Origin: Candidatus Amulumruptor caecigallinarius
Lineage (GTDB): Bacteria > Bacteroidota > Bacteroidia > Bacteroidales > Muribaculaceae
Reading direction: 5' to 3'
Assembly (NCBI GenBank): GCA_944321825.1
Contig: CALUMU010000004.1
Coordinates: 124,001 to 188,000, forward strand
DNA length: 64,000 nucleotides
Shown here: in pieces, positions 4,208-53,424 of the stretch
Layout: the number at the start of each line of letters is the position of its first letter
How positions within the stretch are numbered: position 1 is the first letter of the stretch
The notes under the pieces: generated by a model
What the model was told of the DNA's origin: nothing
Database searches by the model: none
The model's input: the letters and a program-made list of their open reading frames with translations, nothing else
Position numbers and translations under genes: made by a program

Positions 4208-5551
4208 TTATTTCTGTATGTTGGCAGTATGATTTTCGGGAGAGTTGGCAATCTGTCCTATCAGTTCAAAAGGCAATGCCTCGTCAATCGTGACATGCAC
4301 ATATTGGCCCGGACGGAGAGAAGCTCCCTCGGTACGCGGTATGAGGACTACGGGGTCGACTTCAGGGGAGTCCCATTCTGTACGTCCTATGAAATAATCC
4401 TCGTCATAGCTGTCTATGACCACTTCGAGGGTTGAGCCTTCTTTTGCTTGCTGTATTTCGAGGGATATGGATTCTTGGAGAGCCATGAGCCGGTCAAGTC
4501 GTGACTGCTTCACGTCGTCGGGGATGGAGTCTGCATAGGTTTTGGCTGCATATGTGTCATCTTCTTCGCAGTATGCGAATGCTCCCATGCGCTCAAACCG
4601 TTGTTCGCGTACAAAATCCATCAGTTCGTCAAATTCGGCATCCCCTTCGCCGGGAAAACCGACCATCAGCGTTGTGCGGATGTGCAGTCCCGGGACGCGG
4701 CGACGCATCTCGGCAAGCAACTCACGGGTCGCTTTGGCATCGATGTGCCGGCGCATGTTTTTCAGCACCGGGTTCGCGATGTGTTGCAGAGCTATGTCGA
4801 TATAATTGCATACGTTGGGATAGCGTGCCATTACATCAAGGACATCCATAGGGAAATCGGACGGATAGGCGTAATGGAGGCGTATGCGGCGCACACCGTC
4901 GAGTTGTGCCAGCCGTTCGGTCAGTTCGGCTAAAGCTTGGCGGCCATATATGTCTGTCCCGTAAGCTGAGAGGTCTTGGGCTATGACATTAAACTCGCTG
5001 ACACCACGTCCGGCGAGTATTGCGGCTTCTTCGACAATCTCCTCCATGGAACGTGATTTGTAGCGTCCGGTAATGAGCGGTATGGCGCAAAATGCGCAGA
5101 AGCGGTTGCAGCCCTCGGCTATCTTAAGGTAGGCGTGATGACTTGGAGTGGTGATGATGCGGTCATATGACGCTGCCTCTGGAGCGGCTTTTGATATGGC
5201 AGAGACTATCCCCGGCCAGTCGAATTTGCCGTACCACCCGTCTACTTCGGGCAGCTCAGGGGGCAGTTCTTGCTTATACCGCTCGGATAGGCAGCCCATG
5301 ACATAGATTCTCTGTACCATGCCACGGTCTTTGGCTCCCACCCATGTCATGATAGTGTCGATGCTCTCTTCTTTGGCATCGCCGATGAAGCCGCAGGTGT
5401 TGATGACCGCGATGTCGCTTTTGCCGTCGGGAGTGTCGTGGTCAAACCTCACTTCACATCCGGCATCTCGGAGCATCTTCATCAACCTTTCGGAGTCGAC
5501 AAGGTTTTTGGAGCACCCTAAGCTGATAATATCTACTGTGCGGTGCTTCAC
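4208..5551 (-). CDS. rimO: ribosomal protein uS12 methylthiotransferase RimO
   Basis: Radical-SAM enzyme that adds a methylthio group to an aspartate of ribosomal protein S12. The N-terminal UPF0004 domain carries cluster-binding cysteines C13, C53 and C87. The radical SAM core has GCNRFCAFC (C148, C152, C155), and a TRAM domain ends the protein. 447 aa is normal. The opening SLGCSKNLVDSE distinguishes RimO from MiaB. The start is a GTG at 5551 that overlaps the ftsY stop by one base (TAGTG), so translation is probably coupled to ftsY. Confidence 0.95.
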   Translation of the reverse strand: MKHRTVDIISLGCSKNLVDSERLMKMLRDAGCEVRFDHDTPDGKSDIAVINTCGFIGDAKEESIDTIMTWVGAKDRGMVQRIYVMGCLSERYKQELPPELPEVDGWYGKFDWPGIVSAISKAAPEAASYDRIITTPSHHAYLKIAEGCNRFCAFCAIPLITGRYKSRSMEEIVEEAAILAGRGVSEFNVIAQDLSAYGTDIYGRQALAELTERLAQLDGVRRIRLHYAYPSDFPMDVLDVMARYPNVCNYIDIALQHIANPVLKNMRRHIDAKATRELLAEMRRRVPGLHIRTTLMVGFPGEGDAEFDELMDFVREQRFERMGAFAYCEEDDTYAAKTYADSIPDDVKQSRLDRLMALQESISLEIQQAKEGSTLEVVIDSYDEDYFIGRTEWDSPEVDPVVLIPRTEGASLRPGQYVHVTIDEALPFELIGQIANSPENHTANIQK

Positions 5552-6519
5552 TATTTGCTGCCTTTACCGAAAAGTGAGCGTACAAATTCCTGTTTGTTAA
5601 AGACTTGCAAGTCGTCTATCCCTTCGCCAAGACCTATGTATTTGACAGGTATGTTAAATTGGTCGCTTATACCTATGACCACGCCGCCCTTGGCTGTACC
5701 GTCAAGTTTGGTAATGGCCAGCTCGTTGACTTGCGTTGCAGCCACAAACTGTTTGGCTTGCTCGAAAGCGTTCTGTCCCGTAGAGCCGTCAAGCACCAGA
5801 AGCACTTCGTGTGGAGCTTCGGGCACTATCTTCTGCATGACGTTACGGATTTTGGTCAGCTCGTCCATCAGGCCTTTCTTGTTGTGTAGGCGGCCGGCTG
5901 TGTCGATTATTACCACATCGACATCGTTGGCCTTTGCACTTTGGAGTGTATCGAAAGCTACAGAAGCAGGGTCGCTACCCATCTTCTGTTTGACCACGGG
6001 CACTCCGGCGCGCTGCCCCCATATGTCGAGCTGCTCTACGGCTGCCGCGCGGAATGTATCGGCGGCTCCGAGCATCACTTTGTTGCCGGCACGCTTGAAG
6101 TGCGCGGCTAACTTACCTATGGTCGTGGTTTTGCCTACGCCGTTGACTCCGACTACCATGATGACATGTGGCTTATGGCCTGACGGTACGGAAAAATCAG
6201 GAGCCGCGCTGTCGTCACCGCTGGAAGCGAGCATGTCGGAAATTTCATCACATAGCAGGTCGTTAAGCTCGGAGGCAGTCACGTATTTGTCGCGGGCCAC
6301 ACGCTTCTGTATGCGGTCTATGATTTTAAGGGTGGTGTCCGTGCCGACATCTGAAGTGATGAATGCCTCTTCAAGGTCATCGAGTACATCATCGTCGACT
6401 TTGCTTTTGCCGGCTACGGCGCGTGATATTTTTTCAAAGACGCTCCTTTTCGACTTTTCAAGTCCACGATCAAGCGTCTCCTTTTTTTCTTTTGAAAATA
6501 TATTTTTAAAAAAGCCCAT
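5551..6519 (-). CDS. ftsY: signal recognition particle receptor FtsY
   Basis: GTPase receptor that docks SRP-ribosome complexes at the inner membrane. The NG domain is complete: P-loop GVNGVGKTTTIGKLA, DTAGR, and TKLDGTAKGG near the C-terminus. I chose the ATG at 6519 (MGFFKNIFSKEKK). The open frame runs 29 codons further upstream, but that part lies over the promoter at 6567-6598. At 322 aa it is short because the acidic A domain of the E. coli protein is nearly missing, which is usual in Bacteroidetes. First gene of an apparent five-gene operon. Confidence 0.95.
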   Translation of the reverse strand: MGFFKNIFSKEKKETLDRGLEKSKRSVFEKISRAVAGKSKVDDDVLDDLEEAFITSDVGTDTTLKIIDRIQKRVARDKYVTASELNDLLCDEISDMLASSGDDSAAPDFSVPSGHKPHVIMVVGVNGVGKTTTIGKLAAHFKRAGNKVMLGAADTFRAAAVEQLDIWGQRAGVPVVKQKMGSDPASVAFDTLQSAKANDVDVVIIDTAGRLHNKKGLMDELTKIRNVMQKIVPEAPHEVLLVLDGSTGQNAFEQAKQFVAATQVNELAITKLDGTAKGGVVIGISDQFNIPVKYIGLGEGIDDLQVFNKQEFVRSLFGKGSK

Positions 6520-6566
6520 TGGGGATATGTTGAAGTTCGGAAATTTACAGTGGATAATAAGGACTG

Positions 6567-6598
6567 CAAATTTACGATTTTTTATTGAGCTTCCCCAA
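6567..6598 (-). promoter_or_regulatory. promoter of the ftsY operon
   Basis: Read on the minus strand there is a TAAATTTG box (6567-6574), matching TAnnTTTG, and a TTG about 21 bp upstream (6596-6598). It lies about 48 bp before the chosen ftsY ATG and supports that start. Confidence 0.6.
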
Positions 6599-6666
6599 TT
6601 CCGCATTATCCCATAGGATAAATTTGCTTAAAAGGGATGCAAAAAGGAGCTTAAGCTGGTGCCCGC

Positions 6667-7569
6667 TTACTTATCCGTACGTCGTTGCGAGGTGCATTGG
6701 GCAGATGATGCCGGCCGATTGAGGGTCGCGGCAGTCTTGGGCCCGTTGACTTTCTGCATCATAGGTATCGACAGCTGCTTGCGGGTATATGTATAGTGTA
6801 TGGCATCATCGTCGCATACGTTGATGCAGTTGAAGCAGTTGACACACCGCGAACCGTCCACGGTGTGCGATGTCAGGTCTATACACTCCGATTTGCACAC
6901 GTGTTCGCATTTGCGGCACTGTGTACAGCGGTCGGTATCGATGTCTATGCGCATCACCGCATGGCGGCTGACATATCCTAATGCGGTGCCTACAGGGCAA
7001 AATGAATTGCACCACATACGTCCTCGTTTCCATGACATGATGCTTATTATCGTCATCATGCACACCGAAAGGATGAATCCTGATATTGACCCTGCTATCC
7101 ACGGTGGTATCCCACGTACTGTCGGTGATAATATTGTGGAACATGCACGGTGGAATATGCTGCTCGGGTCTAAAAATGCAGCTATAAATGTTATGCCTAC
7201 AAGCAGGCTGGCAAATGTGATGATGACCACTATGTTGCGTATCATGGAGAGTGGTGGACGGTAGTGGTACCAGCCTTGAGTGACTCCCTTACCCCGCGAA
7301 CGGCACCCTAAATGCGAACATATGTCCTGCCAAGTACCTAACGGACACACGGACGAGCAATAGATGCGGCCGAAAAGCAGGGTTACAACAAGCCATATGA
7401 TGCATATTGCCAATGAAAACGACATGGCAGCCGGTAACCATTGTATCGCCTGAAATCCATAGAGGTGGGCGCATATCCACGTTGCAGGCACCGTAAACAG
7501 CAACGTCAGCGATACGAATATCACTGACGATACCATGATGCGGATTGTCTTCAGAGTGGATTTCTTCAT
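6667..7569 (-). CDS. membrane polyferredoxin, 4Fe-4S binding protein (NapH/YccM-like)
   Basis: 300 aa. Four hydrophobic segments alternate with cysteine motifs of the membrane ferredoxin type: YCSSVCPLGTWQD after the second segment and WCNSFCPVGTALG after the fourth. The C-terminal part is a 2x[4Fe-4S] ferredoxin (CTQCRKCEHVCKSECIDL and CVNCFNCINVCDDDAIHY). Family members pass electrons from the quinone pool or cytoplasmic donors across the inner membrane. The partner enzyme is not encoded nearby (ispF is upstream, ftsY downstream), so the physiological role cannot be read from context. The final 35 residues are polar and unrelated to the cluster domains. Confidence 0.82.
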   Translation of the reverse strand: MKKSTLKTIRIMVSSVIFVSLTLLFTVPATWICAHLYGFQAIQWLPAAMSFSLAICIIWLVVTLLFGRIYCSSVCPLGTWQDICSHLGCRSRGKGVTQGWYHYRPPLSMIRNIVVIITFASLLVGITFIAAFLDPSSIFHRACSTILSPTVRGIPPWIAGSISGFILSVCMMTIISIMSWKRGRMWCNSFCPVGTALGYVSRHAVMRIDIDTDRCTQCRKCEHVCKSECIDLTSHTVDGSRCVNCFNCINVCDDDAIHYTYTRKQLSIPMMQKVNGPKTAATLNRPASSAQCTSQRRTDK

Positions 7570-7602
7570 TGATGCGGATTGAGGGGAGGGCGGTGGTAGG
7601 TG

Positions 7603-8094
7603 TCAGTCCTCCCGGTATATCAGAGCAACGGCCATGGCTGCTATGCCTTCCTCGCGGCCGGTGAATCCGAGGCGTTCGGTAGTGGTGGCTTTGACCGACA
7701 CACTGTCATCCGGGATTCCGAGATCTGACGCGATGTTTGCTGACATCTGCGGTATGTACGGCAGTAGCTTGGGTTTCTGTGCCATAATGGTGACATCTAC
7801 ATTGCCCACGGCATATCCCCGGCCAGCAAGCAGGCGGACTACTTCTCTCAAAAGCTTCCGGCTGTCAGCCCCTTTGTAACGAGGGTCGGTGTCAGGAAAG
7901 TGGTAGCCTATGTCACGCAGAGCGGCGGCTCCGAGCAGGGCATCGCTGAGGGCGTGGAGGGCTACATCGGCATCGCTATGGCCGAGCAGTCCGCGCTCGT
8001 GCGGTATATTTACGCCGCAAAGCCACAGCTGGCGGTCTGTGGCGAATGCGTGTACATCAAATCCTTGTCCTATACGGATGGATGGAACTTTCAT
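7603..8094 (-). CDS. ispF: 2-C-methyl-D-erythritol 2,4-cyclodiphosphate synthase
   Basis: Cyclises 4-diphosphocytidyl-methylerythritol 2-phosphate in the MEP isoprenoid pathway. It is a trimeric cytoplasmic zinc enzyme. Signatures are clear: GQGFDVHAF (metal ligands D13 and H15), [19 protein letters not shown] (H47), [10 protein letters not shown] and [19 protein letters not shown]. 163 aa is normal length. The ATG at 8094 is the only start consistent with the conserved N-terminus. It follows porV at 38 bp on the same strand. Confidence 0.97.
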
Positions 8095-8132
8095 ATGTAA
8101 TGGCAGATGCAGTTAATGTTGATAGCTGTGGG

Positions 8133-9329
8133 TTATCGTTTGCCAAGCAGACCTTTGATGCCGTCGACATCGAAGGTGAGCGAGAACCGCAGTGTCTGGT
8201 CCAATGGTGAGTTGGCGGCAGTGGCCACAGTGTAACATGCGTCAAGTTTGAATGCGCTGATAGCAAATCCGGCACCGACGTTGAAATACTGTCGGTTTCC
8301 TTTGGTGGGGTGTTCGTAGAAGTATCCGGCACGGAAGAAAAACTGGTCGTTGTAAGCATACTCCGCTCCGAGTGATAAGGTGATTTCTTTGAAAAACTCG
8401 TTTTTGCCGCTATACCCTTTGCCGAATGATTTGAATATGCCTTTGAACGATGACATGTCTTCCCACTCTTGTTCGGCTTCCTGATATGCCTGTTCGTTGG
8501 TCGAGCCATCCTCGTTGATAAAATCCTGTGCACGCGGTTTGGCCGGGACGAGCAGTTTGTTGAGGTCGAGGCCGAAAGTCAGGTTGTGATAATCGGCCAA
8601 TGGGAACGTAAATGCAGTACCGATGCGCAGGTTGGCTGGCAAGAACGCTGCTTGCTGGCCTTCGTATTTCAGCTTAGACCCGATGTTGGATATGTTCCAG
8701 CCCCACGACCACTGACATTCGTTGCGTCCGATGATAGGATAGTATGTGAAATAACCGTTGATGTCGGCGGCAAAAGCCGATGCTCCGATGGAGTTCGCAT
8801 CCTGCCCGGTATTGTCGTAACCCATGGCTGAGTAGATGTAGCGGAACACGATACCCATCGAGTATTTTGTAGACAGTTTGCGTGAATAACCTATGTCGAC
8901 AGCCATTTCATAAGGGTTGATAGTCGCCTGGTTGTTACCTACGGTCACATCGCCAAGCGAGAAGTAGCGCAGACTGGCACTGACAGCCTGCAGGTCCTGT
9001 GAGCCTATTTTCCAATAGCCGGAAACGGATGCCAGATATATGTCGTTGACAATCTTGCGGAGCCAGGGTACATAGTTGATTGTTACGGCTCCTTGGGAAT
9101 ATGCAAACGCGTATTTTGACGAGTTCCAGTATTGGGAGTTGGCATCGGGATCGGTCGCGGCTCCGAGTTCGCCCATAGATGCTCCGCGGGCATCAGGTGA
9201 AATGCGCAGTGAGGCCACGCCGGTAGTGATAGGGTTTATGTCCTGTATGTCGTCGTTTTTGTCGGCAAGGGCCGCCGGAGTTGATAGAATTGTTGCTGTC
9301 AGGGCGAGAATCGTCTTGCGAAATGCCAT
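8133..9329 (-). CDS. porV: type IX secretion system outer membrane protein PorV
   Basis: Outer-membrane beta-barrel of the FadL-like PorV/PorQ family. In the type IX secretion system PorV carries cargo from the translocon to the attachment machinery by binding its C-terminal domain. Signal peptide (residues 1-22, ending PAALA), then the typical start GVASLRISPDARGASMGELGAAT, aromatic-rich strands and an FDVDGIKGLLGKR C-terminus. 398 aa is normal. The window also contains at least three secreted proteins with Por-type tails (21676, 45219, 62200). porU, which often adjoins porV, is not in view. Confidence 0.9.
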   Translation of the reverse strand: MAFRKTILALTATILSTPAALADKNDDIQDINPITTGVASLRISPDARGASMGELGAATDPDANSQYWNSSKYAFAYSQGAVTINYVPWLRKIVNDIYLASVSGYWKIGSQDLQAVSASLRYFSLGDVTVGNNQATINPYEMAVDIGYSRKLSTKYSMGIVFRYIYSAMGYDNTGQDANSIGASAFAADINGYFTYYPIIGRNECQWSWGWNISNIGSKLKYEGQQAAFLPANLRIGTAFTFPLADYHNLTFGLDLNKLLVPAKPRAQDFINEDGSTNEQAYQEAEQEWEDMSSFKGIFKSFGKGYSGKNEFFKEITLSLGAEYAYNDQFFFRAGYFYEHPTKGNRQYFNVGAGFAISAFKLDACYTVATAANSPLDQTLRFSLTFDVDGIKGLLGKR

Positions 9330-25559: not shown

Positions 25560-25646
25560 TGAAAAATTATTCACGTAACGCCATGACACATATTTCCCTA
25601 TCATTGCAGGCTTACTATTACTTATGTAGCAAAAAATTATCATTTC

Positions 25647-25703
25647 TGAAATATTAATACAATATTTTGGAAATAATTATGAAATATCAGGGTGGTAGCT
25701 TTG
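25647..25703 (+). promoter_or_regulatory. conserved 41-bp element plus TAnnTTTG box, copy 1
   Basis: A 41-bp AT-rich block (25647-25687), with three direct repeats of the form GAAATA(T/A)T and a central CAATATTTTG, is 39/41 identical to the block at 49445-49485. Exactly 8 bp later comes a -7-like box TAGCTTTG (25696-25703), as in the other copy. No TTTG -33 box is present, so an activator site is likely. It drives the small ORF at 25743. Confidence 0.65.
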
Positions 25704-25742
25704 TAGTAGAGAAAATTACAACGTTACTAAAGATACTGCCGT

Positions 25743-25907
25743 ATGCTGCTACTGATATTGGCTTTCGCGTTCCTGTACCTGCTTGTGCTGGCATGGCTGT
25801 GGGCCTCTGACATGATGAGGTCGACAACTTCCATCAACAAGGGAGCGGCTGACCGTCGGCGACACCATGGGCCGCTGTCGCTGTCACCCCCATGGGGTTT
25901 CCGCTGA
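25743..25907 (+). CDS. small single-span membrane protein of a duplicated family, copy 1
   Basis: 54 aa. The first 21 residues (MLLLILAFAFLYLLVLAWLWA) form one hydrophobic helix, followed by SDMMRSTTSI, a basic stretch (DRRRHH) and the ending SPPWGFR. The DNA from TTCCTGTACC through GAGGTCGAC is nearly identical to the reading frame at 49398-49171, and the upstream element is shared too. The gene lies divergently from the fructan HTCS. I do not recognise the family. Possibilities are a small membrane regulator, a hydrophobic toxin-like peptide, or a transcript whose DNA or RNA structure matters more than the peptide. Confidence 0.55.
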   Translation: MLLLILAFAFLYLLVLAWLWASDMMRSTTSINKGAADRRRHHGPLSLSPPWGFR

Positions 25908-49170: not shown

Positions 49171-49398
49171 TTATTGGCTGGGGTATAAACACATTTTTAG
49201 AACCGCCACATCACACCGAGCTGCGTATACGTCCTCACCGAAAACCCCATGGGGGCGACAGAGGCAAGGGGGTGGATCTGGCTGTTTCCGTGACGACTTC
49301 TTGATGGAGGCAGTCGACCTCATCATGTCAGAGCCCCACAGCCAAGCCAGCACAAGCAGGTACAGGAAAGAACACACCGATATTAGTAGAAACAACAT
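49171..49398 (-). CDS. small single-span membrane protein of a duplicated family, copy 2
   Basis: 75 aa as read. Residues 1-22 form one hydrophobic helix (MLFLLISVCSFLYLLVLAWL), followed by WGSDMMRSTASIKK, then a diverged tail. The core FLYLLVLAWLWxSDMMRSTxSI is shared with the ORF at 25743 and almost identical in DNA. Downstream, the DNA that encodes SPPWGFR-stop in copy 1 is also present here (CCCCCATGGGGTTTTCGGTGA) but in another frame; one extra C in the run near 49270 would restore an end matching copy 1. Divergent from the TonB receptor at 49683. Unknown family. Confidence 0.5.
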   Translation of the reverse strand: MLFLLISVCSFLYLLVLAWLWGSDMMRSTASIKKSSRKQPDPPPCLCRPHGVFGEDVYAARCDVAVLKMCLYPSQ

Positions 49399-49428: not shown

Positions 49429-49485
49429 CAAACATATTACCTATATATTTCATAATTATTTCCAATATATTGGATTAATATTTCA
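49429..49485 (-). promoter_or_regulatory. conserved 41-bp element plus TAnnTTTG box, copy 2
   Basis: Minus-strand 41-bp block at 49445-49485, 39/41 identical to 25647-25687, here with a perfect 12-bp central palindrome CCAATATATTGG. Exactly 8 bp downstream on the minus strand is TATGTTTG (49429-49436). It reads toward the small ORF at 49398 and lies about 200 bp from the divergent TonB receptor start. Confidence 0.65.
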
Positions 49486-49682
49486 TAAATGATGAATTTT
49501 TGTTACATCTCCTCGACAATCTATACCATTACTCGGTTTATTAGAAAATGCATTATAAAGATGGGGGCGGATGCTTAACGGTTTTGAAACATTTTTTTAA
49601 TTTTTAATTAATATTCGTGAAAATGCCATGAAACATTCTGTGCCGAACTTTGCAGCGAACATTTAACAATCAATAAACCAAC

Positions 49683-52442
49683 ATGAATTTTTTTAAACCG
49701 TTAGTTGCAATTTCCGCTTTGTGGCTGTCGTCACAAGCCATGGTTTTCGGCGAACCGTATAGAGGCGGAGAAATTGTAGGTCACGTAGTAGATGAATTAA
49801 AAAACTCACTTCCCGGAGCAGAGGTGTCGATCGACGACCGCCAGTGGAGCATAACCACCGATCTGGACGGGAAATACCGCATCCAGGGAATAGACCCGGG
49901 ATCGCATACATTGGTCGTTTCGTACCTCGGCTTTTCGCCAGTCACACGCGACATCTTAGTGAAAGACGGGGAAGCTTTAACGTGTGAAATAGTCCTGAAA
50001 GAAAATACACAGATGTTAGACGAGGTCGTTGTAAAAGGTGTGTTTTCCGAACAGCGTCAATCCATCAACCGCCAGCGGGCCAACATGAATGTCACCAATG
50101 TGGTCTCATCCGAGCAGTCAGGCAAATTTCCAGACTCGAACATCGGCGACGCACTCAAGCGCATATCCGGCATCAACGTCCAATATGACCAGGGCGAAGC
50201 TCGTTTCGGCCAGATCAGAGGTACGGCGGCCGACTTGACATCGGTGACGGTCAACGGTAGCCGTCTCCCGTCGGCCGAAGGCGAAACCCGCTGTGTGCAG
50301 CTCGACCTGATTCCCACCGATATGATACAGACCATCGAAGTCAACAAGGTGGCTATGCCCGATCAGGACGGCGACGCAATCGGAGGGTCAATCAACTTGG
50401 TGACCAAGTCCGCTCCCAACCGCTTTTTCGCCAAAGCATTTGCCGGCACCGGCTATAACTGGATCAGGCGCAAACCGTCGCTCAACTTCGGCCTCACCGT
50501 AGGCAACCGTTTCTTTGACGGGAAGTTAGGCGTTACCGTCGCCGCTTCTTATCAAAACGCCCCTAACGGCTCGTATGACACGGAGTTTGTCTGGGAAAAG
50601 GATGACAACGGCAACGCATATGTCAACGAATACCAAATCCGCAAATATTATGTAACACGCGAACGCCAGAGCTACTCCCTCTCTTTGGACTACAACATCA
50701 ATCCTAATCACAGCCTGTATTTCAAAGGCCTGTTCAACAACCGCAATGACTGGGAAAACCGGTACCGCACCACCATAAAAGACTTGACACCCGAAGGGGA
50801 CGGAACTGTCAGGGTGCAGACCAAAGGAGGAACACCAGACAACCGCGATGCGCGACTGGAACGCCAGCAGACCATGGACTTCTCTCTCGGAGGTAACCAC
50901 AAAGTGGGAATATTTGAAATAGACTGGAATGGCGGATATGCCAGAGCTTCGGAAGAACGTCCTAATGAACGCTACATAGACTATCAGCTGAAAAATCAGC
51001 AGTTCGTGCTTGATATTTCCAATCCAAGAGAGCCGTTTGCCACTCCTGTCGAGGGCAGCACCATGACTCTTAACGACAATTTCTCACTGAAAGAACTCAC
51101 CCAGCAGCAAGAAGATATAAAGGAGGAGGATCTGAAATTCAGCGTAGACCTTGAAACCAATCTCGGAAGCAACTCCAAACTGAAATTCGGCGCGAAAATC
51201 GTCAACAAGACCAAACGCAAGGAAATCGATTTCTACGAATATACTCCGCTTGACGAGGACGGCTTCAACGCCAACGCCTTTGGAAACCTCACCGACGAAT
51301 ACGACCCCCACTTCATGCCTACCGACCGCTACAATCCCGGCATATTTGTCGACAAATCGTATCTCGGTTCGTTGCAGCTTGACGATGCAAGCCAATTCGA
51401 GAAGCAGCAGGTGGCTGAAGAGCTTGCCGCAAATTACAAGGCGAGGGAGACAGTGTCATCGGGTTTTGTACGCTTCGATACCCGTCTCGCCGACAATGTA
51501 GAACTTATGGCAGGTCTCAGAGCTGAAAACACGGCGCTGAAATATACCGGCCGAATCTACGATGACGAGACGGACATGGTTAGCACGACTGACCCCGAAA
51601 CATCCAATTACATCAATTTCCTACCCTCGCTGCTGCTCAAATGGGAGGCCTGCAAAGACTATGTCATCCGCGCCTCTTACACCCAGACCCTTTCGCGCCC
51701 CAAATACTCGGCACTTGTTCCCGGCATGACCATAAGCCGTGGCGACAACGAGATAAAACTTGGCAACCCTAACCTTAAGGCCACCACGTCGCACAATTTC
51801 GACATCCACAACGAATACTACTTCAAGTCGATAGGACTCGTGGGCATGGGGCTGTTCTACAAGAAAATCGAAAATTTCATCATTGACGAAACGCGGTTCA
51901 ATGCAGAGTATCTTGGTCAGACATGGGACAAAATCACACAGCCCAAAAACGCCGGCAACGCCAACCTGTTCGGCATCGAAATGTCGTTGCAGCGTGACTT
52001 CGGTTTCATAACCCCGGCTCTGAAATGTATCGGTTTCTACGGCACATATACCTATACCCACTCCCGCGTATCCGACTTCAACTTCGAAGGTCGCGAAAAC
52101 GAGACCGGCCTCCGGCTGCCAGGCTCTCCGAAGCATACGGCCAACGCCTCGCTCTATTTTGAAAAAGCCGGTGTCAACCTCCGTCTCAGCTACAACTACG
52201 CCTCAGCATTTATCGATGAAATGGGTACCTCAGCCTTCTATGACAGATACTACGACAGCGTAAACTATCTCGATCTCAATCTTTCGTACACCTTTGGCAA
52301 GAAACTGAAATGGACCGTCTATGCCGAAGCAAACAATCTGCTCAACCAGCCGCTGAGATACTACCAAGGCTCAAAAGATTACACCATGCAGGCCGAATAT
52401 TACGGTGTCAAGGTCAACGGAGGCATAAAACTGAGCTTCTAA
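49683..52442 (+). CDS. TonB-dependent receptor (phosphatase-linked locus)
   Basis: 919 aa. Signal peptide (1-23), carboxypeptidase-regulatory-like domain (about 30-115; IVGHVVDELKNSLPGAEVSI), DEVVVKGVFSEQRQSINRQR, plug (about 125-245; NIGDALKRISGINVQYDQGEARFGQIRG, VAMPDQDGDAIGGSINLVTK) and a long barrel ending VKVNGGIKLSF. The DQDGDAIGG plug signature is seen in receptors that pair with secreted hydrolases rather than SusD. It is followed after 43 bp by a calcineurin-like phosphatase, so the pair may scavenge phosphate or a phosphorylated nutrient. Preceded by a 12-codon ORF at 49628-49666. Confidence 0.88.
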   Translation: MNFFKPLVAISALWLSSQAMVFGEPYRGGEIVGHVVDELKNSLPGAEVSIDDRQWSITTDLDGKYRIQGIDPGSHTLVVSYLGFSPVTRDILVKDGEALTCEIVLKENTQMLDEVVVKGVFSEQRQSINRQRANMNVTNVVSSEQSGKFPDSNIGDALKRISGINVQYDQGEARFGQIRGTAADLTSVTVNGSRLPSAEGETRCVQLDLIPTDMIQTIEVNKVAMPDQDGDAIGGSINLVTKSAPNRFFAKAFAGTGYNWIRRKPSLNFGLTVGNRFFDGKLGVTVAASYQNAPNGSYDTEFVWEKDDNGNAYVNEYQIRKYYVTRERQSYSLSLDYNINPNHSLYFKGLFNNRNDWENRYRTTIKDLTPEGDGTVRVQTKGGTPDNRDARLERQQTMDFSLGGNHKVGIFEIDWNGGYARASEERPNERYIDYQLKNQQFVLDISNPREPFATPVEGSTMTLNDNFSLKELTQQQEDIKEEDLKFSVDLETNLGSNSKLKFGAKIVNKTKRKEIDFYEYTPLDEDGFNANAFGNLTDEYDPHFMPTDRYNPGIFVDKSYLGSLQLDDASQFEKQQVAEELAANYKARETVSSGFVRFDTRLADNVELMAGLRAENTALKYTGRIYDDETDMVSTTDPETSNYINFLPSLLLKWEACKDYVIRASYTQTLSRPKYSALVPGMTISRGDNEIKLGNPNLKATTSHNFDIHNEYYFKSIGLVGMGLFYKKIENFIIDETRFNAEYLGQTWDKITQPKNAGNANLFGIEMSLQRDFGFITPALKCIGFYGTYTYTHSRVSDFNFEGRENETGLRLPGSPKHTANASLYFEKAGVNLRLSYNYASAFIDEMGTSAFYDRYYDSVNYLDLNLSYTFGKKLKWTVYAEANNLLNQPLRYYQGSKDYTMQAEYYGVKVNGGIKLSF

Positions 52443-52485
52443 AGAAACAAACCTAACAAATTAACAACCAAATCTTATACACTCT

Positions 52486-53424
52486 ATGAACCTGAACAAA
52501 ATCATTACCATCGCCGCTGCGGCACTGCTCAACACAGTAATAGCTGGAGCACAAAGCCCCCAACTTATCGACTCCATCAAGGGCGAAATCAACCTCTTTG
52601 TAGCTAACGACACCGGCCGCAACGGCTATTACAAACAGAAAGCGATAGCTGACAAGATGGGTGAGATGGCCGATGTCATAGGTCCTGAAGCTGTAATCGC
52701 TATCGGCGACATACACCATTATCTTGGCATCGAATCAGTCGACGACCCCCTATGGATGACAAACTACGAGCTGATTTATACACATCCAGAGCTGATGATT
52801 CCTTGGCATCCAGTATTAGGCAACCACGAGTATGAGGGAAACACCCAGGCAGTCATCGACTACTCCAGTAAAAGCCGCCGCTGGCAGATGCCTGCGAGAT
52901 ATTATACCAAAAGCTGGGAGAATGACGGTACCACCATCCGCTTGGTGATGGTCGACACCGCCCCCCTGATCGACAAATACCGCAACAGCGACGAGCATCC
53001 TGATGCACGCAAGCAGGACATGAACCGTCAGCTACAGTGGGTCGACAGTGTGCTCAACACTGCCAACGAAGACTGGGTGATTGTAGCCGGACACCATCCG
53101 ATATATGCCCAGACCTCAAAGACCGAATCAGAGAGAACCGACCTGCAAAAGCGTCTCAAGCCTATCCTGCTCAAACACAAAGTGGCAGCATATATCAACG
53201 GACACATCCACAACTTCCAGGATATAACAATGCCTGACAGCCCCATACATTACGTCACCAACTCTGCCGGGGCACTGTCACGTAAGGTGAAACCGACAGA
53301 AGGCACGCAGTATTGCAGTCCGTCAGAGGGCTTCTCCATAATAACAGCCGACAAGGACCGCTTGTCCATACACTTCATAGATGCAGACGGCAACAGGCTG
53401 CACGTCATCGAATTGGACAAATAA
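52486..53424 (+). CDS. secreted purple-acid-phosphatase-like metallophosphoesterase
   Basis: 312 aa with signal peptide (1-22). Calcineurin-like motifs in order: NDTGR (D42), IGDIHHYLG (D75), LGNHEYEG (N113, H114), IVAGHHPIYAQ and YINGHIHNFQD. The layout resembles tartrate-resistant (ACP5-like) acid phosphatases. In those, the second motif is GDxxY; here the Tyr position is His78 with a Tyr one place later, so the charge-transfer tyrosine may be missing. Expected periplasmic or surface phosphate release, working with the TonB receptor 43 bp upstream. Terminator directly follows. Confidence 0.85.
   Translation: MNLNKIITIAAAALLNTVIAGAQSPQLIDSIKGEINLFVANDTGRNGYYKQKAIADKMGEMADVIGPEAVIAIGDIHHYLGIESVDDPLWMTNYELIYTHPELMIPWHPVLGNHEYEGNTQAVIDYSSKSRRWQMPARYYTKSWENDGTTIRLVMVDTAPLIDKYRNSDEHPDARKQDMNRQLQWVDSVLNTANEDWVIVAGHHPIYAQTSKTESERTDLQKRLKPILLKHKVAAYINGHIHNFQDITMPDSPIHYVTNSAGALSRKVKPTEGTQYCSPSEGFSIITADKDRLSIHFIDADGNRLHVIELDK

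What the first reader, a model, noticed from the sequence alone, without database searches (positions are those of the whole stretch)
25647..25703. 41-bp element conserved 39/41 upstream of both small-protein copies, with fixed 8-bp spacing to a TAnnTTTG box
Blocks 25647-25687 (+) and 49445-49485 (-) differ at two positions only. In both the -7-like box begins 9 bp after the block (TAGCTTTG, TATGTTTG), although the 8-bp spacers and the leaders differ. Conservation stops where the promoter box begins, as expected for an activator or repressor site. The block contains three GAAATAWT-type repeats, and copy 2 has a perfect CCAATATATTGG core. Both units could therefore be one regulon.
Basis: partly seen in the sequence, partly recalled or inferred. 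Interest (0 to 1): 0.75.

Follow-up and report, generated by a model that had tools for sequence, protein, structure and literature searches.

The report
Phosphate-starvation promoters driving a pit-derived mini-gene
The 41-base element is a binding site of the phosphate-starvation regulator type (four 11-base repeats), and it sits in front of two copies of a tiny membrane-protein gene that appears to have arisen in a second reading frame hidden inside a phosphate-transporter gene and then been copied out on its own.

Summary
In detail: 39/41 identity, the same 8-bp spacer and a TAnnTTTG box at both sites. The proposed HTCS/AraC site is not supported. The 41 bp are four 11-bp direct repeats, the architecture of a Pho box. 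In 128 phosphate-transporter (pit) promoters from Bacteroidales, G[AT]AA[CT] lies exactly 15, 26, 37 and 48 nt before the -7 box (background 0.1). In this genome the same comb precedes porin O/P, TonB-receptor and TonB-receptor/phosphoesterase genes; it also precedes pstS in relatives, and the own pit gene heads a pit-phoB-phoR operon. The 'small proteins' derive from pit: promoter plus about the first 165 nt of pit are recognisable by DNA profile (E 2e-17 and 1e-13), but the open frame is +1 to pit. In one pit clade this +1 frame is open for ~55 codons, with synonymous variation reduced there only (0.33 against 0.55). The window copies keep the +1 amino acids, not pit's. Best reading: an overprinted, PhoB-controlled single-helix peptide gene, embedded in pit in relatives and free-standing twice here. 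PhoB binding, expression and peptide function are inferred; copy 2 has a frameshift before its conserved C-terminus. Main rival: decaying pit 5' fragments.

The parts
25647..25690 (+). Pho box of copy 1: four 11-bp direct repeats TGAAATATTAA/TACAATATTTT/GGAAATAATTA/TGAAATATCAG (units 1, 3, 4 match the pit consensus, unit 2 degenerate)
25696..25703 (+). -7 box TAGCTTTG of copy 1, 15 nt after the G of the last repeat
25743..25907 (+). small ORF copy 1, 54 aa, one predicted helix (2-40); +1 frame of the 5' end of pit, ends LSLSPPWGFR*
49442..49485 (-). Pho box of copy 2: TGAAATATTAA/TCCAATATATT/GGAAATAATTA/TGAAATATATA
49429..49436 (-). -7 box TATGTTTG of copy 2
49171..49398 (-). small ORF copy 2, 75 aa as read; N-terminal ~40 residues match copy 1, then the frame is lost by a 1-nt deletion relative to pit
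49235..49267 (-). conserved C-terminal LPLSPPWGFR* of copy 2, now out of frame with its N-terminus
49618..49652 (+). third comb site: Pho box and GAACTTTG box of the divergent TonB-receptor/phosphoesterase operon
49683..52442 (+). TonB-dependent receptor downstream of the third site
52486..53424 (+). calcineurin-like phosphoesterase (PF00149), next gene

Best explanation
The 41-bp block is a four-repeat Pho box. Under phosphate starvation, two head-to-tail dimers of the PhoB encoded in this genome's pit-phoB-phoR operon would bind it just upstream of the -7 box and recruit RNA polymerase. The transcript encodes a ~54-aa single-pass membrane peptide. Its gene arose by overprinting: in one clade of relatives it is a ~55-codon +1 frame inside the 5' end of pit, starting at an ATG 7 nt after pit's own (ATGGARTATG). 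Promoter and 5' end were copied out, the pit frame was lost, the +1 frame was kept, and the unit was duplicated, so that the peptide is now made apart from the transporter. Shown by sequence: box architecture, promoter companions, pit ancestry, +1-frame conservation, overlap constraint in relatives. Inferred: PhoB binding, induction, translation, membrane insertion, and a likely role in tuning PiT or PhoR.
For: Comb of G[AT]AA[CT] at 15/26/37/48 nt before the -7 box in 128 pit promoters (27/25/10/3 and 26/25/29/34 hits, background about 0.1). Exactly three combs in the window, none in the reversed control. The genome-wide pattern gives 15 sites against 2 in the control, the best upstream of porin O/P and TonB receptors; the own pit heads a pit-phoB-phoR operon; the comb also precedes pstS in two relatives. 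Frame-blind DNA profiles of pit find both copies: coding only E 2.8e-10 and 2.3e-4, with promoter 1.9e-17 and 9.7e-14. +1-frame identity of copy 1 to the pit consensus 26/43 against 12.5 in neutral simulations (P<5e-5), copy 2 22/43 against 16.1 (P 0.008); shared stem changes by +1 codon position 13/2/12. A 102-nt tree nests both copies in the open-ORF pit group, not with the own pit. Chance of the +1 opening 0.002-0.034 per gene. Synonymous variation in codons 4-56 0.33 against 0.55 elsewhere (p 7e-6); also lower in the whole clade defined without those codons (0.49 against 0.58, p 0.004); none in other pits (p 0.86).
Against: No expression, translation or binding data. Copy 2 is frameshifted before its conserved C-terminus (or the assembly has an error). 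The free-standing form was seen only in this genome; +1 frames are closed in two of seven clade members and in the own pit. Several open-frame pit genes were first found by similarity in the +1 frame (L041 and the clade-wide test are free of that bias), and the aligned blocks were chosen where alignment was clear. The sequences are related, so p-values are nominal. The Pho-box assignment rests on promoter companions, not on footprints.
Confidence: 0.7

Rival explanations
1. Decaying fragments: the pit promoter plus 165 nt of pit were copied twice; the promoters survive and the ORFs are chance openings in pseudogene remnants.
For: The pit frame is broken and the rest of pit is missing; copy 2 is frameshifted; the units are found in one genome only. 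The +1 frame was already open in the donor, and staying free of stops has 11-18% probability under neutrality.
Against: +1 amino acids are kept far beyond neutrality and changes avoid the second +1 codon position; relatives show overlap constraint; recognisable homology ends close to the +1 stop codon.
Confidence: 0.2
2. The conserved part of the transcript acts as RNA: a 5' control element of pit whose free copies are small RNAs or decoys.
For: Synonymous constraint at the 5' end of a gene can reflect RNA signals (general knowledge); both copies keep promoter and 5' segment.
Against: Conservation follows codon positions of the +1 frame; no Rfam match in the window; no dip in other pit genes.
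Confidence: 0.07
3. One reading: the 41-mer is an operator of the neighbouring HTCS or the TPR-AraC regulator.
For: An HTCS with an AraC-type HTH is divergent from copy 1.
Against: The HTCS neighbours only copy 1; the same comb marks pit, pstS, porin O/P and TonB promoters elsewhere in this genome and in relatives.
Confidence: 0.03

Closest known systems
Pho box / PhoB-dependent promoters (E. coli CTGTCAT units; B. fragilis PhoB on pstC)
   Same: Tandem 11-nt direct repeats directly upstream of the core promoter, in front of phosphate genes (definition in PMC4415409; B. fragilis PhoB binds a 512-bp pstC promoter fragment, PMC3547664).
   Different: The unit is TGAAAYATT-like, not CTGTCAT; up to four units; fixed to a Bacteroidetes -7 box. 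I found no published consensus for this order in the library searched.
Pi-depletion regulon of Flavobacterium johnsoniae (PMC8115612)
   Same: TonB receptors and phosphatases induced by low phosphate; OprP (PF07396) and a PF14905/PF13715 TonB receptor encoded with phoBR, like the comb-marked pair in this genome (L071).
   Different: No pit-derived small gene is described in the passages read; different order.
Overprinted bacterial overlapping genes (E. coli cases, e.g. PMC4683798)
   Same: A young protein in an alternative frame of an older gene.
   Different: Here the overlap is same-strand, at the 5' end of a transporter gene, constrained across several species, with free-standing copies.
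PiT phosphate transporter (PF01384)
   Same: DNA ancestry of both units: promoter plus the first ~165 nt.
   Different: The pit frame is interrupted and over 90% of the gene is missing.

Membership tests
Pho box (PhoB-type operator) | Tandem direct repeats with 11-nt period | tested here: met
   Four units in both copies; 11-nt spacing in 128 pit promoters
Pho box (PhoB-type operator) | Fixed position next to the core promoter | tested here: met
   Last unit 15 nt before the -7 box; counts at offsets outside the comb 0-2
Pho box (PhoB-type operator) | Occurs before phosphate-acquisition genes | tested here: met
   pit, pstS, porin O/P, TonB/phosphoesterase
Pho box (PhoB-type operator) | A PhoB/PhoR pair in the genome | tested here: met
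   Trans_reg_C regulator and PhoR-like kinase directly after pit; the Bacteroidetes PhoR model scores best but below its curated cut-off
Pho box (PhoB-type operator) | Binding by phosphorylated PhoB and induction by low phosphate | not testable with these tools
   Needs EMSA/footprint and RNA-seq
HTCS/AraC operator | Site accompanies the regulator's own target locus | tested here: not met
   HTCS adjacent to copy 1 only; sites mark phosphate genes elsewhere
Overlapping (overprinted) protein-coding gene | Alternative frame open longer than codon usage predicts | tested here: met
   P 0.0016-0.034 per gene in five of the six clade genes shuffled; the sixth (L187) is closed
Overlapping (overprinted) protein-coding gene | Reduced synonymous variation in the overlap only | tested here: met
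   0.33 against 0.55 (p 7e-6); whole clade 0.49 against 0.58 (p 0.004); other pits no dip
Overlapping (overprinted) protein-coding gene | Alternative product conserved when freed from the parent frame | tested here: met
   Copy 1 P<5e-5, copy 2 P 0.008 against the consensus; but copy 2 C-terminus is out of frame
Overlapping (overprinted) protein-coding gene | Transcribed and translated | not testable with these tools
   No RNA-seq or ribosome profiling available
PiT transporter (PF01384) | Intact pit reading frame with the GVSNDAVNF motif | tested here: not met
   The motif region carries stops in the pit frame in both copies; only ~165 nt remain

The most novel reading that the evidence does not exclude
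A phosphate-starvation membrane peptide is encoded in a second frame inside the first 55 codons of the phosphate transporter gene pit in several Bacteroidales. It is co-produced with PiT and PhoBR to tune them, and in this species it has escaped the overlap by duplication, with two free copies under four-repeat Pho boxes while the own pit lacks the embedded frame.
Probability: 0.5. Interest if true: 0.8.

Novelty: new variant of a known kind. Interest (0 to 1): 0.62.

Why it matters
It gives a usable Pho-box definition for Bacteroidales (four 11-bp units locked to the -7 box), by which phosphate regulons of gut commensals can be read from sequence. It also gives a rare traceable case of gene birth: an overlapping frame under constraint in relatives and, in one genome, free-standing copies that keep the new protein and not the old one. 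Both claims are directly testable in culturable relatives that carry such pit genes.

Tried and rejected
Relatives of the 41-mer by DNA similarity in 397 family genomes gave only AT-rich chance-like matches, not upstream of small ORFs. A genome-contig scan with the two small proteins found no relative. Order-wide search with the small-ORF profile found only pit genes, no free-standing copy. Sister species G001: no match to the small ORF, and none to the TonB gene by DNA; the latter says little. The palindrome CCAATATATTGG as operator: rejected, not conserved. Novel protein family: no Pfam or NCBIfam match for either ORF above cut-off. RNA family: none. Literature: no Bacteroidales Pho-box consensus and no overlapping gene in pit found in the library searched.

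Full report
OBSERVATION. The 41-mer at 25647-25687 (+) and its partner at 49485-49445 (-) match at 39 of 41 positions; each is followed by an 8-bp spacer and TAGCTTTG or TATGTTTG. A whole-genome search finds only these two full copies. The window lies at G000:C4:124001-188000 of a 2.63-Mb genome; companion genomes and named loci point to a Muribaculaceae-type Bacteroidales (inference). The palindrome in copy 2 is not conserved in copy 1 and is not far above chance at two mismatches.

WHAT THE SMALL ORFS ARE. A family-wide protein search with copy 2 hit only genes whose true frame encodes the N-terminus of a PiT phosphate transporter (MEYVFIGIVIFLFVLAVFDLTVGVSNDAVNF...), read one base off. To avoid frame bias I built DNA profiles from pit genes and scanned the window: the coding-only profile finds exactly two significant places, 49394-49240 (-) E 2.8e-10 and 25777-25900 (+) E 2.3e-4; with 100 nt of promoter, 49500-49239 (-) E 1.9e-17 and 25634-25899 (+) E 9.7e-14. 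So each unit is a pit promoter plus about the first 165 nt of pit. The pit frame is broken in both.

WHAT THE 41-MER IS. Upstream of pit genes of relatives the same repeats recur at the same distance. In 128 pit promoters (56 from family genomes, 72 from genome contigs), G[AT]AA[CT] occurs 15, 26, 37 and 48 nt before a [TG][AT]nnTTTG box in 27/25/10/3 and 26/25/29/34 promoters, against about 0.1 expected at each offset and 0-2 at the other offsets. The window copies are 11-bp units TGAAATATTAA / T(A,C)CAATATWTT / GGAAATAATTA / TGAAATAT.. ending at that position. Two 11-nt direct repeat units are the definition of a Pho box (PMC4415409). Companions agree: the own pit gene (L070:7000-9279, -) is followed by an OmpR/PhoB-type regulator and a PhoR-like kinase. 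A two-unit pattern with up to 2 mismatches gives 15 sites in the genome against 2 for the reversed control; among the best are promoters of a porin O/P gene (PF07396), of TonB receptors, and of the TonB-receptor/phosphoesterase pair at window 49618-53424. pstS promoters of two relatives carry the comb. In Flavobacterium johnsoniae an OprP gene and a PF14905-type TonB receptor lie with phoBR, and TonB receptors are induced by phosphate depletion (PMC8115612). B. fragilis PhoB binds the pstC promoter, but no box is defined in the passages found (PMC3547664). In the window exactly three combs exist (copy 1, copy 2, TonB), none in the reversed control.

IS THE SMALL ORF A GENE? Three lines of evidence. 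(a) Against the pit consensus, copy 1 keeps 26 of 43 +1-frame residues where neutral change of the same amount and type keeps 12.5 (P<5e-5); copy 2 keeps 22 against 16.1 (P 0.008); copy 1 against copy 2 32 against 27.9 (P 0.026). Changes shared by both copies and absent from all pit genes compared fall 13/2/12 on +1 codon positions 1/2/3, the reverse of what pit selection allows. (b) In pit genes the +1 frame is open for 55-59 codons from an ATG at base 8 (ATGGARTATG) in one clade only; shuffling synonymous codons reproduces the opening with probability 0.0016-0.034 per gene. (c) In those genes synonymous variation in codons 4-56 is 0.33, the lowest 53-codon window elsewhere 0.467 and the mean 0.55; per codon p 7e-6, and amino-acid-matched resampling agrees; other pit genes show no dip (p 0.86).

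ASCERTAINMENT. Some of these pit genes were first found through their +1 similarity, which biases (c). I therefore defined the clade from codons 61 onward (support 0.999; L041, L079, L185-L188, L190), which includes two members with closed +1 frames; the dip remains (0.49 against 0.58, p 0.004). L041 was found by the PiT model alone.

EVOLUTION. On a 102-nt tree the two window copies join L185 inside the open-ORF group (support 0.84-0.91), not the own pit gene, whose +1 frame closes after 5 codons. The simplest history: the +1 gene arose within pit at the base of this clade, was lost in L187 and L190, and a promoter-plus-5'-end segment was copied or transferred into this genome and duplicated. 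Free-standing copies were not seen in about 600 other genomes searched. Copy 2 carries a 1-nt deletion before its conserved C-terminus; its three differences from copy 1 in LSPPWGFR* are synonymous in that frame, so the frameshift looks recent, or is an assembly error.

MECHANISM (inferred beyond this point). Low phosphate, PhoR phosphorylates PhoB, two tandem PhoB dimers fill the four units, RNA polymerase starts downstream of the -7 box, and a 54-aa peptide is made. AlphaFold on the single sequence gives one helix, residues 2-40 (mean pLDDT 79), with a hydrophobic first half; a single-pass membrane peptide is likely. Association with PiT and PhoBR in relatives suggests that it tunes the transporter or the sensor, but this is a guess.

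VERDICT. Pho-box identity about 0.9; pit ancestry about 0.95; a functional +1 peptide about 0.65-0.7; its role unknown.

Noticed in passing
window 49618-53424 (+): The TonB receptor and calcineurin-like phosphoesterase divergent from copy 2 have their own Pho-box comb; probably a phosphate-scavenging operon.
   Followed up: partly
window 49235-49398 (-): Copy 2 has a 1-nt frameshift between its conserved N-terminus and its conserved LPLSPPWGFR* end; real mutation or assembly error cannot be told.
   Followed up: partly
window 25647-49485: The two units are inverted repeats flanking about 24 kb; recombination between them could invert the segment. Not tested.
   Followed up: no
L071 (G000:C9) 4551-8638: Porin O/P and a PF14905-type TonB receptor in a row, each with its own Pho-box comb, resembling genes of the phoBR cluster of Flavobacterium.
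   Followed up: partly
G001 and many family genomes: pit is patchily present: absent from the sister species and from many family members, several of which also lack a pstC match, so phosphate uptake there must use something else.
   Followed up: no
L073 (G000:C1:239879) and L072 (G000:C7:98061): A SusC-like receptor, and a CarboxypepD_reg protein with two DUF5689 proteins downstream, carry comb-like promoters; candidate unrecognised Pho-regulon members.
   Followed up: partly
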